A DNA stretch of 33,890 nt, taken from the NCBI GenBank assembly GCA_018645725.1, contig JABGWD010000460.1, forward strand, positions 1 to 33,890, given 5' to 3'. The position numbers and the translations under genes were made by a program. Each line of letters begins with the position of its first letter. The stretch's first letter is position 1. Of the stretch, positions 18,785-33,420 are shown piece after piece. This DNA is from Opitutia bacterium (lineage in GTDB: Bacteria > Verrucomicrobiota > Verrucomicrobiia > Opitutales > Seribacteraceae). Below the pieces are notes generated by a model. That model searched no databases. It saw only the letters and a list, made by a program, of their open reading frames with translations, and was not told the DNA's origin.

Positions 18785-21012
18785 AGAAACATTCCCCCAT
18801 ACGCCTCGGCATCCTGATCGCCCTCACCCTTTTGGGCGCTTGGGTTTGTTTTTTCCCAAATTCTTTCGGAACCGCTTCGCTTTTTGATTTCGCAAAGGAC
18901 CCTCCCGTACCTCCCGCCGATTCTTTCGACTTGGACGGCTTCTCCCGCATTCCGGTTTTGCGCGGGGGAAGAGTCAAACCGATCGACAGCGTAGCCCGAA
19001 ACACCTTGCTCGTCCTGCGCAACAAAAGAACTGCCCTTGATGCAGACGAAGAAAAAGTTCCTGCTCTCGAATGGTTTGTCCGTGTTTTGTTCGCTCCCGA
19101 TCAGGCGGATCAGCTCAAAACTTTCCTCATTGATCACGATCAGGTTCTTGGCCTGATGGGAAAGAAGCTTGCAAGCGACGGAAAGCATTTTTCGTATGCC
19201 GAACTGGAACCACATCTTGCCGAAATCGAATCCAGCGCAAGGGAAGCCGGACAACTTGAACAGGAGGAACGGGACAGCTTCCAGCAAAACGTCATCGAAT
19301 TGTACCGCGGGCTTTTGCTCTACCGCAAACTCAAGAACACACTCACCCCTCCCCCCGTTCCTTCCGAAAGTTCCGACATGCTTGATGAAATCGGGGTTGC
19401 CGAGGTCTTTTTCGACCCGGACAAAGATTCGGACCGCACCGCCGAGTACAAACGGTTCCGTGTCTTGACCGGGGTCATCGCCGAACAGCCGTCCTTGATC
19501 GAAATGGGAAGCTCGGAATTTGCCAAGGTCGTCTTTTTCCTCGATCACTATTCGCGGGCCAACATGTGGTCGGAATTCTTTCCCATCCCCCCGGAAGCAA
19601 ACGATCCTCTCGAAAAGTGGCTTGCCGTGGGACAATCACTGGTCGGCGAGGAACCTCTTGATTCCCAGGAAAAACGCAACATGGACCCACGGGCATTCAT
19701 CTCGACCCTCCGCGAATTGGTCGCCCTGTCACCCGATGAATTGAGAAAACGCATAACTGCCATTCGGGAAACGCAGAAAATGAACCCCACCGCCCTCTTT
19801 GCCTCCCAATACGCCGAAGCCATCAAATTACGCCGCGAGGTAGATCCCATTATCGGACTATACGAAAAGCTCGGCATCAGTTACCGTGCCAATGATTTCG
19901 CCACCTTCAACGCGACCGTCGCTCATTTGCGCGAATTGGCCACCGAGCGGGCCGGCGAGGCGGGCTCAACTCTTCACTTCGAGAAAGCATACAACGGCTT
20001 CGAGCCTTTTTACCGCAGTTCCCTTGCTTACGTTCTTGTTTTCATCATTGCCTGCTGCTCCTGGCTCGCCGCGACTTACTCGAACTCCGTTGGCAAAAGC
20101 GACTCTACTGCAAAAATGCTTCGCGATACCGCCTATGTCCTCACGGGTATCGTTTTGCTCTCTCACACCTTTGGTCTTTTCGGCCGGATGTACATCGAGG
20201 GACGCCCCCCCGTGACCAATCTTTATTCCTCGGCCTTGTTCATCGGTTGGGGTGCGGTCCTTCTTTGTTTCGCCACTGAAAAATACCTGCGCTTGGGGGT
20301 TGCCTCCGCGATGGGCTCTTTCATCGGAGCGGGAAGTTTGGTCATTGCCTACAACTTAAGCCTCGATTCTTCCCTCAATCCAACGGGGGACACCATGGAA
20401 ATGATGCGTGCCGTGCTCGATTCCAATTTCTGGCTGGCCACGCACGTAGTCATCATAACCATCGGTTACTCCACTACCTTCCTCGCCGGATTCCTGGGGA
20501 TTGCCTATGTGTTTTATCACCTCAAGTCCGCCCTTTTCGGCAAATCGGAGGGCAAATTGAAGAAAACATTGGAATCGATGATTTTCGGAATTACTTGCTT
20601 TTCCTTGTTGTTCAGCTTGGTGGGAACGGTTCTCGGTGGAATTTGGGCAGATCAATCATGGGGCAGGTTCTGGGGATGGGATGCCAAGGAGAACGGGGCT
20701 CTCCTGATTGTGATTTGGAACGCCCTTCTTCTGCATGCGAGGTTTTCCGGGATTGCCAAGACCAGAGGGCTTGCCGCAATCGCCATCTTCGGAAACGTCG
20801 TCACAGCCTGGTCTTGGTTCGGAACGAACATGCTCGGAGTGGGACTGCATTCCTACGGCTTCATGGACAAAGCGTTCAATTACCTGATGGCCTTCATCCT
20901 TTCCCAATTGGCCATCATTGCCTTGGCCTACTTCCCCGCCTTTGTGAAGATGCTGATCAAGTTGGCAAGCAAACTTATCTCCAGTCCACCCCCGAACGAG
21001 ACCAGAACCTAG
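18781..21012 (+). CDS. CcsA/ResC-like cytochrome c assembly protein with long N-terminal extension
   Basis: ATG at 18781 (ATGA overlap). GRPPVTNLYSSALFIGWGAVLLC, GGIWADQSWGRFWGWDAKENGALLIVIWNALLLHARF (WWD-type motif). Confidence 0.9.
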   Translation: MKKHSPIRLGILIALTLLGAWVCFFPNSFGTASLFDFAKDPPVPPADSFDLDGFSRIPVLRGGRVKPIDSVARNTLLVLRNKRTALDADEEKVPALEWFVRVLFAPDQADQLKTFLIDHDQVLGLMGKKLASDGKHFSYAELEPHLAEIESSAREAGQLEQEERDSFQQNVIELYRGLLLYRKLKNTLTPPPVPSESSDMLDEIGVAEVFFDPDKDSDRTAEYKRFRVLTGVIAEQPSLIEMGSSEFAKVVFFLDHYSRANMWSEFFPIPPEANDPLEKWLAVGQSLVGEEPLDSQEKRNMDPRAFISTLRELVALSPDELRKRITAIRETQKMNPTALFASQYAEAIKLRREVDPIIGLYEKLGISYRANDFATFNATVAHLRELATERAGEAGSTLHFEKAYNGFEPFYRSSLAYVLVFIIACCSWLAATYSNSVGKSDSTAKMLRDTAYVLTGIVLLSHTFGLFGRMYIEGRPPVTNLYSSALFIGWGAVLLCFATEKYLRLGVASAMGSFIGAGSLVIAYNLSLDSSLNPTGDTMEMMRAVLDSNFWLATHVVIITIGYSTTFLAGFLGIAYVFYHLKSALFGKSEGKLKKTLESMIFGITCFSLLFSLVGTVLGGIWADQSWGRFWGWDAKENGALLIVIWNALLLHARFSGIAKTRGLAAIAIFGNVVTAWSWFGTNMLGVGLHSYGFMDKAFNYLMAFILSQLAIIALAYFPAFVKMLIKLASKLISSPPPNETRT

Positions 21013-21515
21013 CCCCCGGAACCTTTTTTGCGATTCTTCCGCTTGGCCCCCGGAGTCTTTTTCAGTTTCTCCCTGAGGGTTTTCAGAATGGGTTCGGCAG
21101 GCCTCCCGAATGAGCAGGGAAAAGACAAGCGATCGTTTGACAATCCTCTGGACTCCACCGCGCTCTCCTTCAATACGGCTACGATCAGCTTTCGGTTGAT
21201 GTAATCCTCAAGCTCAAAATCCTTGATCTCTTCATGTCTAAAACTTTCCTTTCTCCACCAACTACGGAGGTGAAAGCCCTCCGAATCAATCTTCAACCGA
21301 GACCATTCGAAAAGTTGATCGAGCAAGTTCAAAAGACCTGCCAAGGCAAGAATGATCGTTCCAAACAAACTGACGTTTTCGCCAAGAGTTTCTGAGAAAG
21401 TACCGCTAAGAACGAAAAACAAAGCGCACAGGAGCAAAAAAAACGTGAATGCGACTTGCCTCCAGCCAACCGGCTTGATGACCGTAACGTCTTTTCTTCT
21501 GCCCCCCTCCCGCAT
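21009..21515 (-). CDS. Hypothetical small membrane protein (two TMs plus PH-like soluble domain)
   Basis: 168 aa. VAFTFFLLLCALFFVLSG and VSLFGTIILALAGLLNLL, followed by LKIDSEGFHLRSWWRKESFRHEEIKDFELEDY. Confidence 0.55.
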   Translation of the reverse strand: MREGGRRKDVTVIKPVGWRQVAFTFFLLLCALFFVLSGTFSETLGENVSLFGTIILALAGLLNLLDQLFEWSRLKIDSEGFHLRSWWRKESFRHEEIKDFELEDYINRKLIVAVLKESAVESRGLSNDRLSFPCSFGRPAEPILKTLREKLKKTPGAKRKNRKKGSGG

Positions 21516-21521
21516 GAATGC

Positions 21522-23009
21522 CTATGCGGGTCGAAGTGTGGGAAAAAGAATGGTATCGCGAATGTTCGATGCCTTGGTGAGGAAGATAACCAAGCGGTCT
21601 ATCCCCAAGCCCATCCCCCCGGCCGGAGGCATGCCATGCTCAAGGGCGAGAAGGAAATCATCGTCCAACTCTTGCGTTTCCTCTCCTACCTGTTTCATGA
21701 AGGCTTCTCTCTGAACGAACGGATCGTTTTGTTCGGAATACGCCGGGGCAATTTCCTGACCGTTGATACAAAGTTCGAATACGTCGATGGTGCTCTCGTC
21801 GTCCTCGGTAATTTTGGCCAAGGGGCAAAGTTCGCGTGGAATATGGGTCACGAAGGTCGGCTGGATCAGGGTATGCTCGATAATCTTTTCAAAGACGTCG
21901 TTGGTGATCTCGAAGTCCTCCAATTCGGGATCCACTTCTATGCCCAATTCCTTTGTCTTTTCAAGCTTGGCCGACTTCGGCAGTTCAAACCAGTCGTCCC
22001 GGCCAACCGCACCAAGGATCAAGTCCTTGTACTTCGCCTCCTTCCAATTCCCCGAAAGGTCAATCGCTTCCCCCTCTTCCCTTTCCATTTGCAAAGTACC
22101 CAAGGCTCTCTCGGCCACTTGCTGAATGAGGGATTGGGTCAACTCCATCATGCCACGAAAATCGGTATAGGCCTGATAAGCTTCGAGCATAGTGAACTCC
22201 GGGTTGTGCCTGCGGGACAAGCCTTCGTTACGGAAAACCCGTCCGACTTCGAAAACCCGATCGAATCCACCGACCAACAACCTTTTGAGATGCAGTTCCA
22301 GGGCAATCCGAAGGCTGAAGTCACAATCCAAGGCATTGAAGTGCGTTTCAAAAGGACGGGCGGCGGCTCCGCCGGAAACCGCTTGCAACATCGGGGTCTC
22401 GACCTCCAAAAAATCCCTGCTCCAAAAAAACTCACGGATTTCCCTGATAACCCTGCTTCTCGCCCGGAAGCGTTCGCGGGAATCGTCGTTGACGATCAAG
22501 TCGAGATAACGCTGGCGGTAGATTTGTTCGTTATCCGTCAGGCCATGCCATTTTTCCGGCAAGGGGCGAAGAGCCTTGGAGACAAGTCGATACTCCTTCG
22601 CCCGGATGGTAATTTCCCCCGTCTTGGTACGAAAGAGAGGACCGCGAATTCCGATAAAGTCACCAAGGTCAAGTTTCTTGAAGGCAGCGTACTCGTCATC
22701 CCCGATCTCATCCCTGCGGACATAGGATTGAATTTTGCCATCCCGGTCGATGATCTTCAGAAACGATGCCTTGCCCATGAGACGGAAGGCAACGATTCGA
22801 CCGGCCACCGAAACCTCCGGTCCTTCATCCAGGTCTTCGGGCAATAGTTCGAGAGCTTCACTCGAAGTATGGGACTGATCCCAGTTCGAACGGTAGGGAT
22901 CGTTTCCGGATTCTCGCAAATGATCGAGCTTGCTTTGGCGGACCGCAAATTGATCGCTTCCGTCAAGAGAAGAATCCACGGTGGGGTTTTTGGGCTGTTC
23001 TTGGCTCAT
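21522..23009 (-). CDS. lysS: Lysyl-tRNA synthetase (class II)
   Basis: MSQEQPKNPTVDSSLDGSDQFAVRQSKLDHLRESGNDPY, RYLDLIVNDDSRERFRARSRVIREIREFFWSRDFLEVETPMLQ, FRNEGLSRRHNPEFTMLEAYQAY, GMGLGIDRLVIFLT. Confidence 0.97.
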   Translation of the reverse strand: MSQEQPKNPTVDSSLDGSDQFAVRQSKLDHLRESGNDPYRSNWDQSHTSSEALELLPEDLDEGPEVSVAGRIVAFRLMGKASFLKIIDRDGKIQSYVRRDEIGDDEYAAFKKLDLGDFIGIRGPLFRTKTGEITIRAKEYRLVSKALRPLPEKWHGLTDNEQIYRQRYLDLIVNDDSRERFRARSRVIREIREFFWSRDFLEVETPMLQAVSGGAAARPFETHFNALDCDFSLRIALELHLKRLLVGGFDRVFEVGRVFRNEGLSRRHNPEFTMLEAYQAYTDFRGMMELTQSLIQQVAERALGTLQMEREEGEAIDLSGNWKEAKYKDLILGAVGRDDWFELPKSAKLEKTKELGIEVDPELEDFEITNDVFEKIIEHTLIQPTFVTHIPRELCPLAKITEDDESTIDVFELCINGQEIAPAYSEQNDPFVQREAFMKQVGEETQELDDDFLLALEHGMPPAGGMGLGIDRLVIFLTKASNIRDTILFPTLRPA

Positions 23010-23092: not shown

Positions 23093-24562
23093 CTAGGTGT
23101 TGGGCAAACGGGCCAAGGCCACCCGGAAGCCAAGGTTTCGGTAACGATGGAAGAGAGATTGAGTGTCTCTCGAGGAGGACTTGCACCCGGATGCCTTCTT
23201 CATGTAACTCCCTCCCCGGCAAATACGGAACTCGTCTTGTTCGGTATCATCGAGAAGGGTATTGACGAAGGAATTCCCGACCCATTCCCTGACGTTCCCG
23301 TACATATCGTGAAGACCCCAGGGGTTTGGCAGTTTGAGTTTGACCGGATGAACCCGCCTTACGCTGTTCACCAAGTACCAACCATGTTCATGCAATTCGG
23401 CAGGATCGTCTCCGAAATAGTAGTCGGTGGTCGTCCCTGCCCGGCAGGCATATTCCCATTCGACCTCGGTAGGAAGGCGGAATTCATGGTTTTCCGGAAG
23501 ACTTCCACTGTCCTTGGCCAAAACGGTCAGGGCCTTGCAAAACTCAACGGCGTCCAACCAGGAAACCCTGTTCACTGGCAAATTGAAGACTTCTGCACCG
23601 CCATCCGTATCGACGTCGCTGGGATTCGATCCCATGACTTCGGTGTATACCTCCTGAGTAACCAATAACTGGCTCAGCCAAAAATCATTGCGCACGTGCA
23701 CGAGGCGAACGTCCGAGGTATAGGGAACGCGAACGGTTATTTTCCCTGAAGGAATCCACGAAAGATCGCCCACGTAGGAATCGGAAAAAGGTGGTTTGTC
23801 CTGTCGTATATTGTTTTCGGCTTCATCGACGATGACACCGACGGCAAAAGGGTGACGAGTCTTTTGAGCACTCAAGGCTTTGGGCTTTGCAGGAGAACGC
23901 TGAGGAACCGGTATCACCGGAGAGAACCCGGCTTTCTTTTCCTTGTCGTCTTCGGTATCTTTGCCTTCGGTGACCGAAGAGCTACCGTTTTGACGACTGT
24001 ACCGGTTGACTTGGGCGGCGAAGACCTGCTCCATGATTTTCCACAAGGCTTCCCCTTCGTCCAGTACTTCCTCGCCAGTTGACTTGCGGTTGAGCAAATG
24101 GCGGTGTTGGCCTTGGCTGTCGGCTTTGGCCAAAATGTTGCGCATGACCTCTATGGCTTTCTTTTGCCAACCGAGTTTATAGTAGAAGCAAGACTGAAAC
24201 TGTTGCAAACAGAGTTTCAAGCTTGGGGTCAGTGTAATATCCTCGAGAAAAATAGGCAGCATCGGCTTGTTTTCACTCAGGGCGAATTGAATTTCCCGGT
24301 TCACGTGGGAAGAAGAACAAGCGCTCGGGGAAAGAAAGACGGCAAACATATCGGATCCCATGATCTTTTGGGCAATTTCATTTTGCCACTCCTCGGCGGG
24401 AGGTATGCCATCATCATACCAAAGATTCAAATTCGCTTCATGAAAATGACGCATGGCATTGTAGACCAACACCTTGTCCGCATGAGCATAACTGACGAAG
24501 GCGAAAGGCTTGCTTCCCGAGTAAGACTCGAAAGGGATTGGAATGTCAGGTGAGGTTGTCAA
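23093..24562 (-). CDS. TIR domain - FGE/sulfatase-modifying-factor (SUMF1-like) fusion protein
   Basis: N-term SKPFAFVSYAHADKVLVYNAMRHFHEANLNLWYDDGIPPAEEWQNEIAQKIMGSDMFAVFLSPSACSSSHVNREIQFALSENKPMLPIFLE (TIR with conserved Glu). C-term LVTQEVYTEVMG, FRLPTEVEWEYACRAGTTTDYYFGDD, GLHDMYGNVREWV, CRGGSYMKK (FGE-sulfatase). Only a TTG start is available. Confidence 0.9.
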   Translation of the reverse strand: MTTSPDIPIPFESYSGSKPFAFVSYAHADKVLVYNAMRHFHEANLNLWYDDGIPPAEEWQNEIAQKIMGSDMFAVFLSPSACSSSHVNREIQFALSENKPMLPIFLEDITLTPSLKLCLQQFQSCFYYKLGWQKKAIEVMRNILAKADSQGQHRHLLNRKSTGEEVLDEGEALWKIMEQVFAAQVNRYSRQNGSSSVTEGKDTEDDKEKKAGFSPVIPVPQRSPAKPKALSAQKTRHPFAVGVIVDEAENNIRQDKPPFSDSYVGDLSWIPSGKITVRVPYTSDVRLVHVRNDFWLSQLLVTQEVYTEVMGSNPSDVDTDGGAEVFNLPVNRVSWLDAVEFCKALTVLAKDSGSLPENHEFRLPTEVEWEYACRAGTTTDYYFGDDPAELHEHGWYLVNSVRRVHPVKLKLPNPWGLHDMYGNVREWVGNSFVNTLLDDTEQDEFRICRGGSYMKKASGCKSSSRDTQSLFHRYRNLGFRVALARLPNT

Positions 24563-24589
24563 TGCGGGCCAGAGGATGGGGGTCGGACG

Positions 24590-26542
24590 TTATTCCTTGT
24601 ATCCGGTACGTTGCAGGATGTAAATGGGATGACTGCCGTAATTCTTGGCCAACTCCAAATTACCAACGTACTCGAAATCAAAATCATCGTGCCCGAAGGA
24701 TAGCAGGGCAGCCATGATTTCCGAAACGTAAACGGAACCGGGCAAGACGATCGGTTCGATTCGAGCGGCTTGATTGACGTGTTTGCCAAAGAAATTCTTC
24801 CTCATCAGAACGGGATCCAATTCTTCGTAAACCGGCCCGGCATGCATGGAAATCCTGACTTCCAGTCCATCGGTCAGCCCCAACTCGTCCCAGTTTCCCT
24901 TGGAGAAGTAATCCCTCAACTGGATTGCCAAGCTCAAGGCATCGTCCAAATCGTCAAAAACCGCAAAGAAACTATCCCCCCACGTATTGACGAAAGCAGG
25001 GGGTTTCGAAAGCGTCCCGAGACCATCGGAAATTCCGCCCAAGAACTTCTCCACGAATACCGGGGTCAGCTCCTCGGACACCTTGGTGAACCCTTCGACG
25101 TCCGCAAAAAGCATGACCTTGACCGTACGGGACACTGTTTTCTTCAAGCTTCCGTCGGCTATGACGATTGCGGGCTTGGTTTCCCCCGAACTGGACGGGG
25201 CGGCATTCTGTTCGCCTACGGACGAAAGGACCTCCTTTGCATCAATTACAATCGGTTCGTTAAAAATGGACGTCCATCTTTCCACAAGCTCCCCGGTTCC
25301 TCCGGTAGATCCTTTTTGTCCGTCCCAAAAAACGAGCAGTTTCGGGTTTTCATCCAGTCCTCGTCCCCGCATGGCAGTGAACCCGAGCAGGACGTCATTG
25401 CAAAAGGAATAAAGAGAATCTTCGCCGTTATAGCCCTCACGCGTGACATAATGAACGGCGGTCGCCTGATCAAGTACCTTTTCGAACCGGGCAACCCAAT
25501 TGCCACCTGCTCTTCTGACGCTTGTCTCGATGAATTCATCCTTCGCGAAGGGAAGAAAAACATGGGTTTCACCGCCCCGTTCGGCCATCGTCTCAAGAAA
25601 GAGTATGTCGGTTCCGCATGCGGCCGAACTGTACCCGCAACTCGCTCCCATTGATGCCAAGGCTTCTTCGATCTTTCGCTTGACCTCGGGTTCGGCTTCC
25701 GGCGGAAACCTGCGCGCTCCGCCCGGACTGTCTATGACATGGCCCGAACAAGCAACGATTCCCAATTTTGGAAAGGCAAAAGAGATTTCCTCAAGAATAG
25801 CCTCATCCTCGTAAACGCTGGCAATTTGAAGAGCTTGCTTTCGGGTACTCGCAATTTGAGAAGGTTCGGCATCCCCCGAAGACACCGCCTCACCGTAAGC
25901 CGATGCCGCCTCCTCGATGGACCCGAGAAGCAAGAGGGCTTCCGCCTCGGTTACCTGAATCCAATAATTCGAGGTTCCCTGATCCTTGAGTTTTCGGCAA
26001 ATCTGACGGGCTTTTTCAGCGCTTTCTCTGCCTTTCTCCCGATCACCCGAGAGAAAATGCATGAAAGCGATGTTGATACAGGGATAGTATTGGGTCTCCA
26101 GATCCTGTCTCTGACTCACGCGAAGGCTGTCAAAACTGTTGGTCGAATAAGCCTCCTCGTAGCGGGCAATCGCCAGGTCGGCATATTTTTTCTTACTGCT
26201 TTGGTCGCTTGAATACTCCCACAAATCCTTGTAGGCGCTCGCCAGCAGGCTATGAGTCTCCACGTCCCGGTCTCCGCCCGCAACCAACTCCTCCAAAATC
26301 TTCGTGGCCATCATCGGGGAACCCGCCTTCGACAGGGCATGCCCCGCCCGTTGACTCAGTTTCTTGTGCTTCTTGAACTTCTTGAGCCCGGCCCGGGCAA
26401 CGTCGTGAGCAAGAAGGAATTCACCCACCTTGATCATTTTCTCGCACAAAGAAAGAAACTCCATGGCCGAAGCCTTTTCCTGATCAAGAAGCTTCCACTC
26501 CAACCGGAGGTTCGGACTGAGTCTCTTTTGTAATTGCGACAT
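24590..26542 (-). CDS. TPR-like / TRAFs-binding-SLOG-like / class III nucleotide cyclase fusion
   Basis: N-term helical repeats. Middle SGHVIDSPGGARRFPPEAEPEVKRKIEEALASMGASCGYSSAACGTDILFLETMAERGGETHVFLPFAKDEFIETSV. C-term VKVMLFADVEGFTKVSEE, FVNTWGDSFFAVFDDL, KHVNQAARIEPIVLPGSVYVSE. Confidence 0.85.
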   Translation of the reverse strand: MSQLQKRLSPNLRLEWKLLDQEKASAMEFLSLCEKMIKVGEFLLAHDVARAGLKKFKKHKKLSQRAGHALSKAGSPMMATKILEELVAGGDRDVETHSLLASAYKDLWEYSSDQSSKKKYADLAIARYEEAYSTNSFDSLRVSQRQDLETQYYPCINIAFMHFLSGDREKGRESAEKARQICRKLKDQGTSNYWIQVTEAEALLLLGSIEEAASAYGEAVSSGDAEPSQIASTRKQALQIASVYEDEAILEEISFAFPKLGIVACSGHVIDSPGGARRFPPEAEPEVKRKIEEALASMGASCGYSSAACGTDILFLETMAERGGETHVFLPFAKDEFIETSVRRAGGNWVARFEKVLDQATAVHYVTREGYNGEDSLYSFCNDVLLGFTAMRGRGLDENPKLLVFWDGQKGSTGGTGELVERWTSIFNEPIVIDAKEVLSSVGEQNAAPSSSGETKPAIVIADGSLKKTVSRTVKVMLFADVEGFTKVSEELTPVFVEKFLGGISDGLGTLSKPPAFVNTWGDSFFAVFDDLDDALSLAIQLRDYFSKGNWDELGLTDGLEVRISMHAGPVYEELDPVLMRKNFFGKHVNQAARIEPIVLPGSVYVSEIMAALLSFGHDDFDFEYVGNLELAKNYGSHPIYILQRTGYKE

Positions 26543-26608: not shown

Positions 26609-26809
26609 TTACATCTTTTCGTAACGCGTACGAAGCATTTGGGTGAAAGCAGCAACCTTGCGGGCCTCTCTCTTCTTGTCGGACCGCTTTTCAAAATATC
26701 GCTTGGCTCTCACGTCGCGAATTACGCCTTCACGGTCGAGACGTTTTTTCAGTCGACGAATGGCCCTGTCAATGGGTTCGCCTTTACGTAGTTTGATTTC
26801 GATAGTCAT
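26609..26809 (-). CDS. rpsU: 30S ribosomal protein S21
   Basis: MTIEIKLRKGEPIDRAIRRLKKRLDREGVIRDVRAKRYFEKRSDKKREARK. Confidence 0.95.
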   Translation of the reverse strand: MTIEIKLRKGEPIDRAIRRLKKRLDREGVIRDVRAKRYFEKRSDKKREARKVAAFTQMLRTRYEKM

Positions 26810-26863: not shown

Positions 26864-29800
26864 TCAGGCTTTCTTGGCCCAAGGTCTTTCGGGCGGCGGC
26901 TCGGGCTCGCTCATCACCACGCGGGCACCCTTTACGGGTTCGCGTTTCCTCCATTCCTTGAAGCAATCGGGCGTCAACCGCATGGAAAACCTTGGGTCCG
27001 TCTCGACCACCAGGCCATCATCCTCCCCCTGGCGGGCAAAGCCCAGTCGGATCAACGTCCCCCCTTCTCCACGATCCCCCAAGGCAAACAGATCCTTGGC
27101 AAATTGCTCGGCATCCTCGTGCGCAGGGTCAATCAGCCAAGTAACCTCTTCGGCTAATTCAGCAATTGCACGATCGATCGCCCGGACCGTACTGACCGTC
27201 ATGCGGGTCTCCCCGTCCCGACGAGAGACCACGCCCTCCACGACAACGATCTTTCCTTCCTCGAGCGTCACCCCGTATTTCTCGTAAGCCTCGGTAAACA
27301 TGGGCAGTGAAAAATCCTTCTCCTTGGCCAACAAGTTAAATCTCGCCCATGGCTTGGCATCCTTCTTGGTATATCTTCTCTCGATGTCCGCAAGCACTCC
27401 GCACAGACGGAAAGATCGCCTGTCTTCGACTTTGTCCAAGTCCTCGGACTTGATCGTGTCAAGGAGCGGCCCAAGTCCCTGCAAGGTATCGACCGGGTGA
27501 CCGGAAAGAAAAAAGCCCAGCAATTCCTTCTCCAACTTGAGTTTTTCGAGTTCCTCCATCTCGGGAACGTCGGGCAGTCCGTTGTTCGGGGAGAATTCTC
27601 CGGAGTCACCCCCGGTTTCTTCCTCTCCACCGCCCATCATGTCGAACAAGTTGACCTGCCCGGCTTCACGGTCCTTTCTTCTGAGCTGAGCCTCCCCCAT
27701 CGCACGGTCCAAGTCAGCCAGCAAGGCCGCCCGGTTTCCTTCCAAAGCATCGAAACCTCCCGTCTTGATCAAGCACTCGAGCACTCTCTTGTTGACCGCC
27801 TTTCCATCCACCCGCTCGACCAGATCGGTAAAGCTTTCGAAGGGACCGTTCTTTTCGCGTTCCTCGACGATCGTCTTGGCCGCAATATCCCCTACCCCCT
27901 TGACCGCGGCCAACCCGAACCTGATCGAATTCCCCGTATCGCCCTTTCCCTCGATCGGGGTAAAGCTTTCGCCCGATTCATTGACCTCGGGCCCAAGTAC
28001 GGAAATTTCCATCTCGGCGCATTCCCCGAGGAAGTGGGACAACTTGTCGGAATTCCCCAGCTCGCAGGAAAGAATCCCCGCCATGAAATCAACCGGGTGA
28101 TTCGCCTTCAGGTATGCGGTCTGGTAACTGATGATCCCATACGCCGCGGAGTGGGATTTGTTGAACCCATAACCTGCGAATTTTTCCAGGATGTTAAAGA
28201 TTTCGTCCGCTTTTTTCTTGTCGATCTCATTGGTCTCCTTCGCACCCTTGACAAAGATCGCGCGCTGCTTGGCCATTTCCTCCGGTTTCTTCTTGCCCAT
28301 CGCCCGGCGCAGAATATCGGCTCCTCCGAGCGAATACCCCGCTACTCGTCTGGCCGCTTCCATGACCTGCTCCTGATAGACCATCACCCCATAGGTTTCC
28401 TCGCAGACCTCTTCCAACAGAGGGTGCGGAAACTTGATCGTGGACGGATCTTCCTTGCCCTTGATGTAATCGGGAATCCACTCCATCGGACCGGGGCGGT
28501 AAAGGGCGATCAGGGCGATCACCTCGTCCACGTTGGCAATCGTCATTTGCTTGCACAGCCTCCTCATCCCTTCGGACTCCAACTGGAAGACTCCGATCGT
28601 ACGGGCCTCGTTCAACAGGTTGAATGTCAGCTCATCCTCCAAGGGGGCATCCGCCACCCGGAATTTTTCCAATCCCGGCTTCTTTCGGATATGCTCCTCC
28701 GCCTCGTCAATCACGGTCAGGGTCTTAAGGCCCAAAAAGTCCATTTTCAACAGCCCCAGATCCTCAACCGGATCCTTCGGAAACTGGGTGGTCAACACAC
28801 CGTCCTGAGTCGTCAAGGGGACGAGTTCCTTGAGGGGACGGTCGGCAATGATCACCCCCGCGGCATGAGTCCCGACATTTCTCACCATACCCTCGATTAC
28901 CCGACCGGTATCCACAATCTGCTTGGCAATCGGATTCTTTTCATACTCGGCCCCAAACTCCGGGCTCTTGGCCAACGCATCGTCGAGGGAAATATTCAAG
29001 TCGTCCGGGATCATCTTGGCCAACTTGTCCGCCTCCGCGTAGGGGAGATCGCGTACCCGGGCGACGTCTCGAACCACCATTTTCGCCCCGAAGGTACCGA
29101 AAGTAATGATGTTGGCCACACAATCGCGCCCGTATTTTTCCCGGACGTACTCAATCACGTCTCCCCGGCGTCTCATGCAAAAATCGATATCGAAATCAGG
29201 GGGAGAAACCCGTTCCGGATTAAGGAATCTCTCGAAGAGCAAACCAAAGCGCAAAGGATCGATATCCGTGATCCCGAGACCGTATGCAACCAGACAACCT
29301 GCTCCCGATCCGCGACCCGGTCCGACCGGGATTCCCTGCTCGCGGGCCCAGTTCATGAAATCCGCAACGATCAGGAAGTAATCATTGAACCCGGTCTTCG
29401 CGATGACCCCCAGCTCGTAATCGACCCGCTCGCTCAATACACGGGTCTGGTCTTCCGGATCATCCGCCCGTTTGTCCTCGGGTTGGTACTCCGCATCATA
29501 CCTGTCCTTCAATCCCTCGACGCAAAGATGCTTCAGGTACGCGACGTTATCCTCGACCTCCGACTTGATCTCCGGGGGCATCGAGAAGACCGGGTAATTG
29601 TTCTCCCCGAAGGGCAACTTCACTTCGCACATCTCGGCCACTGCAAAAGTGTTGGTGATCGACTCGGGGGCCTCCTTGAAGAGGTCTTCCATCTCCGCCC
29701 TCGACTTCAGGTAGAATTCCCGGGCATCGTACCTCATCCTCTTCTCGTCATCGATCTTCGAACCCGTCTGAATACAAAGCAAGGCATCATGGGGGGCCCA

Positions 29801-30457
29801 ATCCTCGCCCTTTACGTAGTGAACGTCATTGGATGCGATCGTCTTCAAACCAAACTTCTTGGCCAACTTGAGAAGTTCGGGAATAAGCTTGATCTGTTCC
29901 TCGATCCCATGGTTATGAAGCTCGACGAAATAATTTTCCTTCCCAAAGATATCGATCATCTGGCCCATCGCCTTTTCCGCCTCCCCCTCTTCGCCCCGCA
30001 GGATCAACTGGGGGATCCATCCCTGCATGCATCCCGTAAATGCGATCAATCCCTTGGAAAATTCGGCCAAAGTTTCCAAATCCGTCCGGGGGCGGTAGTA
30101 AAAACCATCGACATGGGCGTCGGAAACGACCTTGGACAAATTCTGGTACCCCTCGTAGGTCCGGGCCAGCATCCCGATGTGATAGGATTTGTGATTTTCC
30201 CGGCCAGGTTTCTCATCGTTCTTGTGATCGGTCACCATGTAACCCTCGCACCCGATGATTGGCTTGATCCCGCGCTTCTCCGCATTCTTGACAAAGGAAA
30301 TCGTACCGAACAAATTCCCATGGTCGGTCAGGGCCATGGCGGACTGTCCAAGCTCGACCGCCCGGTCCATCAACCGGTCCATCCGGCAGCACCCGTCCAG
30401 CAAGCTGAAATCGGAATGTACGTGCAAGTGCACGAAATCTTTGTCTTTGTCGGCCAT
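26864..30457 (-). CDS. dnaE: DNA polymerase III alpha subunit
   Basis: [41 protein letters not shown] (PHP), [85 protein letters not shown]. Confidence 0.98.
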
Positions 30458-30630: not shown

Positions 30631-31560
30631 CTAATCATCCTTGATCAGGGAAAACAAATCACTGTCAGCATCGGAGCGTATCTTGATTCCAGAGGACGAG
30701 AATTCGACTTCCACATTACCATGCTCACCATTGACAATTGCCTTACTCTTCATCTCCGAAAAGACCATCCGAGTTCGTAAACTTCTATTTGAATCCCACA
30801 AATGCCTTGGTGATGGAACCAGACATGCCTTTGCTCTTGTCGCTAGAAAAAATTCATTGGAAGCCAGACCCTCTGTTCCATGATGAGGAACCTTCAGAAC
30901 GTCACAGATAATCGATTCTTTGCTATTGCGAACTATCCAATTGCTGAGCTTCTTGTTTAGATCCCCAGTGAACAAAGCTTTGTACGGCCCATATGTAAGC
31001 TCCGCAACCAGAGATAATTCGTTGATATCCGGACCAATTCCAAGTTTTGAAAGCTCATCCTCATTAAAAATAAAAAGTTTTCTGAAATGACAGTTTTCGC
31101 TGAAGGAAAAGGTGTCAAAGTGACTGTAATCCTGTATCAGGATATTTTTCGCCTCGGCACTCTTCCTTATCTCAATCAGATCCCCATAATTCCCTCCCCA
31201 CCACTCTCTCTTCATCCATTTTTGGCTCACGTCATTCATATAAATAACTCCTATCTCGATTTCAGATTCAATTATGGTCAAAAGGCCTCCGTAATGATCC
31301 GAGTGAGGGTGGGTGATAAAAATAGCATCAATCGATTTTATTTTTCTTTCGTTCAGGTCACGGATTAGCTTGGATGCTGTCAATTTATGACCGGTATCAA
31401 TCATGATCGTCTTCCCGTAGCCTTGAACCAAATGCGCATCTGTCTGTTGAAGGGAATGGTTCACACCGAGCATGGTCCATGTCACCACTGTAGAATCGGA
31501 TGAACCACAACCAAAGAAAGAAAACGAGGTCAGTAACAAAAACAAATGGCATCTTTTCAT
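30631..31560 (-). CDS. ComEC/Rec2-like metallo-beta-lactamase-fold hydrolase, putative lipoprotein
   Basis: MKRCHLFLLLTSFSFFGCGSSDS (lipobox), IDAIFITHPHSDHYGG, YKALFTGDLNK, VLKVPHHGTEG. Locally AT-rich. Confidence 0.85.
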   Translation of the reverse strand: MKRCHLFLLLTSFSFFGCGSSDSTVVTWTMLGVNHSLQQTDAHLVQGYGKTIMIDTGHKLTASKLIRDLNERKIKSIDAIFITHPHSDHYGGLLTIIESEIEIGVIYMNDVSQKWMKREWWGGNYGDLIEIRKSAEAKNILIQDYSHFDTFSFSENCHFRKLFIFNEDELSKLGIGPDINELSLVAELTYGPYKALFTGDLNKKLSNWIVRNSKESIICDVLKVPHHGTEGLASNEFFLATRAKACLVPSPRHLWDSNRSLRTRMVFSEMKSKAIVNGEHGNVEVEFSSSGIKIRSDADSDLFSLIKDD

Positions 31561-31650
31561 TGTCAGGACATCATTAGCATTATTTTCAATGCGCAATCAA
31601 ACAAATGGAAAACCAAATGCCGATTTGCCTAAGCAAGCACTGGAAGTACA

Positions 31651-33420
31651 TTACTCCCCCAGAACGTTGATCGGGGTGAGCTCGAACTTGCGGAATTCCA
31701 CCTCCGAACCCTCCGCCTGGATGGCAAGCTTTCCCTTCTTCGCGGTGCAATCGGACCCATGGTTGACCAGCTCCCCATTTACCCAGACCTTGACCTCGTC
31801 GCCCACGCACTCGATCCTCATCCGGTTCCATTCTCCGACCGGTTTTTCCGAGCCGTCGGTCAGGTTGACGATCCGGCGGGCCTTCCCCTCCGTGATCCCC
31901 CAGTTCTTCTCCGCCCCGCGCCTCTTGACCATGTCGGGCACCACGATATTCTCCACGATGCACCAGAAATCACCCGCATGGGTATGGTTCATCTGCACCT
32001 CGATCGACTTCGGGTACATCTTGTACAAGTTGCGCAACTTGGATGCATGGACCAGCACCCCGCAATTTCCAGGCTTGCCCGCAAAGCGGTACTCCGCAAT
32101 CACCCGGTAATTCTCGAATTTCTCGTCGGTCAGCAGATGCCCGCCCGGCGAGCCCAAGCTGACCAGCATCCCGTCTCGAGAAACGAAGGGCTTCTTGCCC
32201 TCCGGTTTCTTGTCGAGGGCAGGCACGTCCATCGACCACCCGCTCAGGTCCTTCCCATTGAACAGGCTGCGCGAATGGGGAGAGGACAACCCGTGCTTGT
32301 CATAGAGCCGATGCCAGAAAACCTTCCAGTACTTGTCATAGTAGTCGAGCGCAGCGGTATCGATATGGGGCAAATCCTCCGTCACGGGGGCCTTCTCCGG
32401 ATCGTAGCCCTTCAAGTGTGCCTTGCCCGCCCGTTCGCGTGGAGAAACGAAGCGCCAGTCCCCCTCGCCCAAAACCTCCGAGCACAACTTGGCCAACTCG
32501 AGATCGTACTCCTTCAATTGCTTGCGGGTATGGATATGGTTATGGTCATGATCCATCGTGCGGTTTGTATTGTACCAGCACTGCACGCCCTCCGCCCAGT
32601 ACTCCGACCGGTTGCGTGACGCATAGCACCTCTTGGGACCGTCGAAGTTGACCAGTACCTTGTCCTCCCCGTTCACCTTGACCGAAGATTTTGCCTTCTT
32701 CCCGTTCACCAACACGTCGCCCTCCTGCAGGCACTTTTTCAAAAGCTCATCCGATTCTTGCGGGAACCATTTTTTCAAGGCCCCCAATAAAGAGACCTTC
32801 TTTTTTCCCTTCACCCGCCTGAAGCGCTGAGCCGCCCGGCCATCGTTCCAGATTTCCAATTCTCTCGCCTTCTCGAAGGCCGCCGTGAGTCGCTTCTGCT
32901 GATCCTCATCAAAACCGGCCCCATGGATGACGTGTCCGAACTCATGAATCAAGATACTCTCCAGCCTCATGCCCCCCTCGTATTCCATCACGTCCTCCTC
33001 GGCAAAGACGACCACCGGGCGCGGTCCGAACCAGCGCAAAAAGCCCCGGCTTCGCCAGTTGTAAAAATCCAATTCCTTTCCCTTCTTGTCGCTCCTGAAC
33101 TGGGGAACTTCGGAAGTCAATTCGGCATGCCCGATCAGGATGCACAACAAGCGCTTCTCCCGTATCCTCTCCGCCACCTTCTTGTCGATCGACTGCATGA
33201 TCTTCCCGAACAAATAGGCCGACTCGGCATGGGCATAATCCGAGACCCGATCCGAGGTCGCGATAAGGATTCCTTCCACCTCCGTCCCCTTCTTGAAGAA
33301 CTTCCCGTCCAGCTTGTGGACCTTGAGCTGTTTTTCGTTCAAGGGCTTGGTCTCATGCCCGGCCTGCAGGGCGATGGCAAAGACAAAAGATAGAGAAAAG
33401 GTGAGCAAGCGCAGGTTCAT
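31651..33420 (-). CDS. Secreted HExxH metallopeptidase-like domain fused to a 3-keto-disaccharide hydrolase (DUF1080) domain
   Basis: Signal peptide LLTFSLSFVFAIALQAG. LESILIHEFGHVIHGAGFD (HExxH), RSEYWAEGVQCWYNTNRTMDHDHNHIHT. C-term SLFNGKDLSGWSM, YRVIAEYRFAGKPGNCGVLVH, SIEVQMNHTHAGDFW, EWNRMRIECVGDEVKVWVNGELV. Confidence 0.85.
   Translation of the reverse strand: MNLRLLTFSLSFVFAIALQAGHETKPLNEKQLKVHKLDGKFFKKGTEVEGILIATSDRVSDYAHAESAYLFGKIMQSIDKKVAERIREKRLLCILIGHAELTSEVPQFRSDKKGKELDFYNWRSRGFLRWFGPRPVVVFAEEDVMEYEGGMRLESILIHEFGHVIHGAGFDEDQQKRLTAAFEKARELEIWNDGRAAQRFRRVKGKKKVSLLGALKKWFPQESDELLKKCLQEGDVLVNGKKAKSSVKVNGEDKVLVNFDGPKRCYASRNRSEYWAEGVQCWYNTNRTMDHDHNHIHTRKQLKEYDLELAKLCSEVLGEGDWRFVSPRERAGKAHLKGYDPEKAPVTEDLPHIDTAALDYYDKYWKVFWHRLYDKHGLSSPHSRSLFNGKDLSGWSMDVPALDKKPEGKKPFVSRDGMLVSLGSPGGHLLTDEKFENYRVIAEYRFAGKPGNCGVLVHASKLRNLYKMYPKSIEVQMNHTHAGDFWCIVENIVVPDMVKRRGAEKNWGITEGKARRIVNLTDGSEKPVGEWNRMRIECVGDEVKVWVNGELVNHGSDCTAKKGKLAIQAEGSEVEFRKFELTPINVLGE

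What the first reader, a model, noticed from the sequence alone, without database searches (positions are those of the whole stretch)
23093..26542. Candidate signalling/defence module: nucleotide cyclase plus TIR-FGE effector between rpsU and lysS
Seen: two adjacent co-directional genes. The first is TPR-like/SLOG-like/class III cyclase, the second is TIR fused to an FGE-sulfatase domain. Both are embedded among conserved housekeeping genes. Known: Pycsar pairs a class III-type cyclase with an effector such as TIR, and TIR enzymes degrade NAD+. SLOG domains are proposed nucleotide-ligand sensors. Inference: this may be a Pycsar-like or SLOG-TIR signalling system with a different architecture. 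The effector lacks a recognisable cyclic-nucleotide-binding domain and instead carries an FGE (lectin-like fold) module, while the cyclase protein carries its own putative sensor domains.
Basis: partly seen in the sequence, partly recalled or inferred. Interest (0 to 1): 0.85.

Follow-up and report, generated by a model that had tools for sequence, protein, structure and literature searches.

The report
Core TIR and SLOG-cyclase signalling pair
Next to a ribosomal gene, a family of marine Verrucomicrobiota carries as a fixed, inherited pair what other bacteria carry only here and there: a cyclase enzyme with a built-in nucleotide-sensing (SLOG) domain, and a TIR (NAD+-enzyme) protein with a lectin-like tail; they look like the two halves of a nucleotide-signalling circuit.

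Summary
Two minus-strand genes lie between rpsU and lysS: TPR-S/SLOG/class III cyclase (650 aa), then TIR-FGE (489 aa). The middle domain, which has no Pfam hit, is a YpsA-clade SLOG by profile comparison (probability 96%, controls 2% or less). Metal-binding, transition-state and TIR catalytic residues are intact. The FGE half lacks one of the two catalytic cysteines, so it is a lectin-fold module.

The pair is not a mobile defence island. It sits in the same slot across one Opitutales family (TIR-FGE in 38 of 44 genomes, 14 of 14 high-quality), under purifying selection. TIR-FGE was lost twice with the cyclase kept intact. Outside the family the cyclase is sporadic, yet repeatedly adjoins TIR or STAND/FGE genes, far above chance.

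It is not Pycsar: there is no cyclic-nucleotide-binding domain. No step of the chemistry was tested. New variant of a known kind.

The parts
24590..26542 (-). TPR-S / YpsA-clade SLOG / class III nucleotide cyclase gene, 650 aa
25778..26542 (-). N-terminal TPR-S and helical region (residues 1-255)
   Evidence: PF20308 at residues 49-161, 4.8e-14; all-helical AlphaFold2 model
25229..25777 (-). SLOG domain, YpsA-like (residues 256-438); the most conserved part of the protein (75 of 183 columns invariant)
   Evidence: hhalign against YpsA family prob 96.4, E 1.2e-9; controls 2% or less; Rossmann-like strand-helix order; conservation
24593..25132 (-). class III cyclase domain (residues 471-650)
   Evidence: PF00211 2.5e-14; PDB cyclases by sequence and fold
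25100..25102 (-). metal-binding Asp481
   Evidence: invariant in A1/A3
24974..24976 (-). metal-binding Asp523 in the NTWGD signature
   Evidence: invariant in A1/A3; lost only in three divergent homologues
24986..24988 (-). Asn519, at the base-specifying position (Lys in adenylate, Glu in guanylate cyclases)
   Evidence: aligned to E of 3et6 and K of 3mr7; Asn in every full-length homologue examined that has both metal Asp
24761..24763 (-). transition-state Arg594 (with Asn590)
23093..24562 (-). TIR-FGE gene, 489 aa
24113..24505 (-). TIR domain (residues 20-150)
   Evidence: TIR_2 1.3e-16; best PDB fold matches SARM1 TIR
24293..24295 (-). Glu90, candidate catalytic glutamate
   Evidence: aligned with the Glu of SARM1 VHKEIVTAL; invariant in 27 sequences
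23096..23776 (-). FGE/FGS lectin-fold domain (residues 263-489)
   Evidence: FGE-sulfatase 3.8e-33; 91 of 227 columns invariant
23183..23200 (-). FGE active-site stretch: Lys455 where human FGE has its first catalytic Cys; Cys460 retained
   Evidence: alignment with 2aft, SYMSHRSYC against SYMKKASGC
26609..26809 (-). rpsU, upstream neighbour
   Evidence: Ribosomal_S21
21522..23009 (-). lysS, downstream neighbour
   Evidence: tRNA-synt_2; ATG start at 23009
26864..30457 (-). dnaE, conserved upstream neighbour

Best explanation
This is a conserved two-protein nucleotide-signalling relay. The FGE (lectin-fold) half of TIR-FGE recognises a fixed molecular cue, and its TIR domain then cleaves NAD+ to an ADP-ribose-type signal. 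The YpsA-type SLOG domain of the partner protein binds that signal. Binding, with the TPR-S region, switches on the attached class III cyclase, which makes a cyclic mononucleotide of unknown base. That second messenger acts on cyclic-nucleotide receptors elsewhere in the genome, giving a stress or infection response. Shown here: the domains, intact catalytic residues, strict co-localisation, vertical inheritance, recurrent TIR adjacency in other lineages, and cyclase retention after TIR-FGE loss. Inferred: both enzymatic activities, the signal's identity, the direction of flow, the receptors and the physiological purpose.
For: The SLOG domain belongs to the YpsA-like clade, which is described as including cADPR sensors (PMC9503650). 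In Thoeris, the TIR protein senses infection and its cADPR product binds a SLOG domain (PMC11204291). TIR Glu90 aligns with the SARM1 catalytic glutamate and the best fold matches are SARM1. FGS/FGE domains have been proposed as invader-sensing lectin-fold modules (PMC8195603), and this one lacks the first FGE cysteine. The TIR protein has no CNBD, while the genome has about seven such domains elsewhere. SLOG is the most conserved part of the cyclase protein. Two genomes lost TIR-FGE but kept an intact cyclase; no TIR-FGE was seen without the cyclase, apart from contig-end truncations. Elsewhere the cyclase adjoins TIR proteins with other C-terminal modules (TPR, WD40), as expected if the TIR partner carries an exchangeable sensor.
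Against: No biochemistry. Pycsar is a precedent for the opposite direction (cyclase product activates TIR). SLOG ligand specificity cannot be read from the sequence, and ligand-binding residues of ThsA were not compared. Several homologous cyclases have no TIR nearby. Cyclase retention after TIR-FGE loss could reflect another function or recent loss. The retained cyclases would need another signal source, such as another TIR protein (this genome has five TIR matches including this one).
Confidence: 0.38

Rival explanations
1. Pycsar-like forward signalling: the TPR-S/SLOG part senses a trigger, the cyclase makes a cyclic nucleotide, and this activates TIR-FGE (through FGE or the linker) to destroy NAD+.
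For: Cyclase plus TIR pairing; all catalytic residues intact; recurrent adjacency of this cyclase family to TIR genes; Pycsar precedent with TIR (PMC11224242).
Against: No CNBD on the TIR protein; FGE is not a known nucleotide-binding fold; cyclases with intact active sites persist where TIR-FGE is gone; no mobile or patchy distribution in this family.
Confidence: 0.3
2. The two proteins form a complex or parallel outputs: TPR-S/SLOG senses an NAD+-derived or other nucleotide, and cyclase and TIR are both outputs of a housekeeping regulator of NAD+ or translation status tied to the dnaE-rpsU-lysS operon, unrelated to phage.
For: Core, vertically inherited, purifying selection, housekeeping location; no homologue of the cyclase found in viral contigs; FGE and SLOG strongly conserved rather than diversifying.
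Against: Related cyclases elsewhere adjoin TIR, STAND-NTPase and SIR2-TIR genes typical of conflict systems, and one fragment lies on a mobilizable plasmid beside a TIR-WD40 gene.
Confidence: 0.25
3. The FGE half is a formylglycine-generating or sulfatase-related enzyme and the pair controls sulfatase maturation.
For: Pfam family name; Cys460 retained; marine Verrucomicrobiota are sulfatase-rich (general knowledge).
Against: The first catalytic Cys position is Lys455 here and conserved as Lys in all 27 sequences; closest PDB relative is the Treponema denticola variable protein 1, a C-type-lectin-fold binding protein.
Confidence: 0.03

Closest known systems
Thoeris (ThsB TIR plus ThsA SIR2-SLOG)
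   Same: TIR protein next to a SLOG-bearing partner; SLOG of the clade said to include cADPR sensors.
   Different: The SLOG partner carries a class III cyclase and TPR-S instead of SIR2; the TIR protein carries FGE; core and vertical rather than patchy.
Pycsar (PycC class III cyclase plus PycTIR or PycTM)
   Same: Class III cyclase next to a TIR protein.
   Different: No CNBD on the TIR protein; the cyclase has TPR-S and SLOG; base-specifying residue is Asn in an NTWGD signature (in the cCMP cyclase EaPycC the residue four before the metal Asp is Arg, PMC11224242).
TPR-S and FGS conflict-system proteins described by the Aravind group (Pfam PF20308; PMC7159879; PMC8195603)
   Same: Same domain vocabulary: TPR-S, SLOG, cNMP cyclase, TIR, FGS.
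   Different: In the passages read I found no description of this two-gene arrangement or of a core, fixed locus; the main 2015 paper was not available.
Split and fused homologues in other Verrucomicrobiota (L068, L095, L097, L105)
   Same: Same TPR-S/SLOG/cyclase, adjacent to effector-like genes.
   Different: Partners are DUF4062-NACHT-TPR, TIR-TPR or nSTAND-WD40-FGE instead of TIR-FGE.

Membership tests
Pycsar | Class III cyclase (PycC) with metal Asp pair and transition-state residues | tested here: met
   D481, D523, N590, R594
Pycsar | Effector with cyclic-nucleotide-binding domain (PycTIR) or another listed Pycsar effector | tested here: not met
   No cNMP_binding domain in TIR-FGE; PADLOC gives only weak ThsB and SAVED-TIR hits
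Pycsar | Makes cCMP or cUMP | not testable with these tools
   Base-pocket residue N519 differs from adenylate and guanylate cyclases aligned; product unknown
Thoeris | TIR protein (ThsB) with catalytic Glu | tested here: inconclusive
   TIR with Glu90; PADLOC ThsB hits weak, best 9.4e-4
Thoeris | Effector ThsA with SIR2-SLOG or TM-macro | tested here: not met
   SLOG present but joined to a cyclase; no SIR2 or macro domain found
SLOG superfamily, YpsA-like clade | Profile similarity over the domain and Rossmann-like fold | tested here: met
   hhalign prob 96.4, E 1.2e-9; strand-helix order. The whole-model fold search did not list a SLOG in its top 50
Formylglycine-generating enzyme | Two active-site cysteines | tested here: not met
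   Lys455 and Cys460
Mobile defence island gene | Patchy presence, variable genomic position | tested here: not met
   Fixed slot in the family; sporadic only outside it

The most novel reading that the evidence does not exclude
A two-messenger cascade: a TIR enzyme makes an ADP-ribose-type signal that is read by a SLOG domain built into a nucleotide cyclase, converting an NAD+-derived signal into a cyclic mononucleotide of non-standard base, and fixed as a core circuit in a whole bacterial family.
Probability: 0.33. Interest if true: 0.85.

Novelty: new variant of a known kind. Interest (0 to 1): 0.6.

Why it matters
TIR/SLOG and cyclase/TIR circuits are known as separate, patchily distributed phage defences. 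A pair that joins TIR, SLOG and a class III cyclase, is found beside TIR genes in several lineages and has become a core operon in one marine family would be a case of an immune-type module turned into constitutive cell signalling. It makes a direct test possible: does an NAD+-derived signal control a nucleotide cyclase?

Tried and rejected
SLOG recognition by Pfam or by PDB sequence search failed, and hhalign against DprA and LOG was not significant; only the YpsA comparison worked. STALD (a SLOG family associated with Sir2 and TIR) was searched in the phylum and nearly absent. Whole-model Foldseek of the cyclase protein was dominated by TPR and cyclase matches and did not settle the SLOG domain. 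The first lysS identities come from a frame error in my query and were corrected. The distance correlation used partial dnaE sequences and was redone with full ones. The Anti-Pycsar-like hit of the metallo-beta-lactamase gene at 30631 was rejected as a link: below cut-off and not conserved there. The PADLOC search gave no system. No relatives of the cyclase were found in viral contigs; TIR-FGE found only FGE-domain relatives there.

Full report
Observation. The two genes are real and minus-strand, in the order dnaE, rpsU, cyclase (26542-24590), TIR-FGE (24562-23093), lysS. Gaps are 66 bp (rpsU to cyclase), 27 bp (cyclase to TIR-FGE) and about 83 bp (TIR-FGE to lysS). Pfam finds TPR-S and Guanylate_cyc on the first, TIR_2 and FGE-sulfatase on the second. 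Promoter and terminator scans gave no more sites than shuffled sequence, so operon structure is inferred from spacing and synteny only.

The cyclase protein. PDB cyclases align at residues 476-643. Both metal-binding aspartates (D481, D523) and the transition-state arginine R594 are invariant in the family; N590 is Asn in the family and Ser or Thr in most outgroups. At the base-specifying position, where aligned cyclases have Glu (3et6) or Lys (3mr7), this protein has N519. The signature NTWGD is kept in nearly every full-length homologue examined that has both metal aspartates, and N519 in all of them. Three homologues (L100, L102, L107) have lost both aspartates and look inactive. For comparison, the cytidylate cyclase EaPycC is reported with metal residues D102 and D146 and base residues F100, R142 and Q144 (PMC11224242), so its Arg is at the same spacing; the product of the present enzyme cannot be predicted.

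The middle domain. No Pfam match and no credible PDB sequence match exists. The AlphaFold2 model shows a Rossmann-like strand-helix order at residues 262-433 (mean pLDDT 71.5). Profile comparison with YpsA (sequence verified as 2nx2) and nine phage YpsA relatives gives probability 96.4, E 1.2e-9 over 158 columns. DprA, LOG, TIR, cyclase and TPR controls give 2% or less. SLOG is the most conserved region of the protein.

The TIR-FGE protein. Glu90 aligns with the Glu of SARM1's VHKEIVTAL and is invariant in 27 sequences; the best structural matches are SARM1 TIR domains (model pLDDT 64, TIR part better). The FGE half aligns to human FGE with Lys455 at the first catalytic cysteine position (the 2aft chain itself shows Ser there; that the native residue is Cys is general knowledge) and Cys460 at the second, so enzymatic FGE function is unlikely. 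FGE is the most conserved part of this protein, which argues against a diversifying receptor.

Distribution in the family. The cyclase was found in 35 of 37 family genomes including the window's; the two without any match are 59-60% complete, and a few matches are partial. TIR-FGE is in 38 of 44 family genomes and in 14 of 14 high-quality ones. The order dnaE-rpsU-cyclase-TIR-FGE-lysS-small uncharacterised gene is the same in nearly all loci long enough to show it. The well-supported shallow clades of the cyclase and TIR-FGE trees match those of dnaE+lysS+rpsU; deep nodes are unresolved. Distances correlate at r = 0.81 and 0.63, and rates are 1.8 and 2.3 times the reference. dN/dS against the nearest relative is 0.049 and 0.090 (dnaE 0.041). 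In 15 other families of the order lysS is not next to rpsU or dnaE, so the slot appears specific to this family.

Losses. In G001 (a single-cell genome, so chimera is possible) a scar holding the first and last few codons of TIR-FGE remains between cyclase and lysS. In G030 the gene is absent and lysS follows directly. Both cyclases keep all active-site residues. No genome with TIR-FGE and no cyclase was seen, apart from contig-end truncations.

Outside the family. 15 of 393 other phylum genomes in the sample have a homologue, plus G048. Neighbours: DUF4062-NACHT-TPR 8 bp downstream (L068); TIR-TPR 20 bp downstream in a genome with only one TIR match (L095); TIR-TPR 15 bp upstream (L105); nSTAND1-WD40-FGE 52 bp upstream, with a TIR gene beyond it (L097); divergent TIR genes in three genomes of one genus (L098, L099, L101). 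A Tolypothrix plasmid has a cyclase fragment 93 bp from a TIR-WD40 gene. Others have no TIR nearby (L108, L094, L096, L100, L102, L104, L107). With a rough expectation from TIR counts per genome, finding TIR next to (or one gene from) the cyclase in five of 11 families has a probability of about 2e-10 (approximate, ignores TIR clustering and rests on one assumed rate for a genome not counted).

Mechanism. Two directions are open. Cyclase-to-TIR copies Pycsar but has no CNBD to receive the signal. TIR-to-SLOG-to-cyclase copies Thoeris logic, uses every domain present, and explains why cyclases outlast TIR-FGE; about seven cNMP-binding domains elsewhere in the genome could receive the product. 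I rate the second slightly higher (0.38 against 0.30). A non-defence housekeeping role is compatible with either direction and is favoured by the core, vertical distribution.

Novelty. All domains are known and the Aravind group has described this vocabulary, including FGS as an invader-sensing module (PMC8195603) and YpsA-like SLOG as a clade with cADPR sensors (PMC9503650). I found no description of this pair; the 2015 source paper was not available. PADLOC and NCBIfam do not name it.

Noticed in passing
window 30631-31596 (-): Metallo-beta-lactamase-fold protein upstream of dnaE with ComEC-C-terminal-like and weak Apyc1 similarity, both below cut-off; not conserved at this place in relatives.
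   Followed up: partly
window 21009-21515 (-): Uncharacterised 168 aa protein that follows lysS in the whole family and evolves faster than its neighbours.
   Followed up: partly
L104 6083-7938, L105 6787-8651: The cyclase is split into two overlapping genes (TPR-S/SLOG and cyclase) in some lineages, showing the two parts can act as separate proteins.
   Followed up: partly
L100, L102, L107: Homologues with lost metal-binding residues, apparently inactive cyclases, in loci without an adjacent TIR gene.
   Followed up: no
L098-L102 (family f15): Clusters of TIR genes, up to 18 per genome, in one family of the order.
   Followed up: no
window 31651-33420 (-): Protein with a 3-keto-disaccharide hydrolase domain, upstream of the metallo-beta-lactamase gene.
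   Followed up: no
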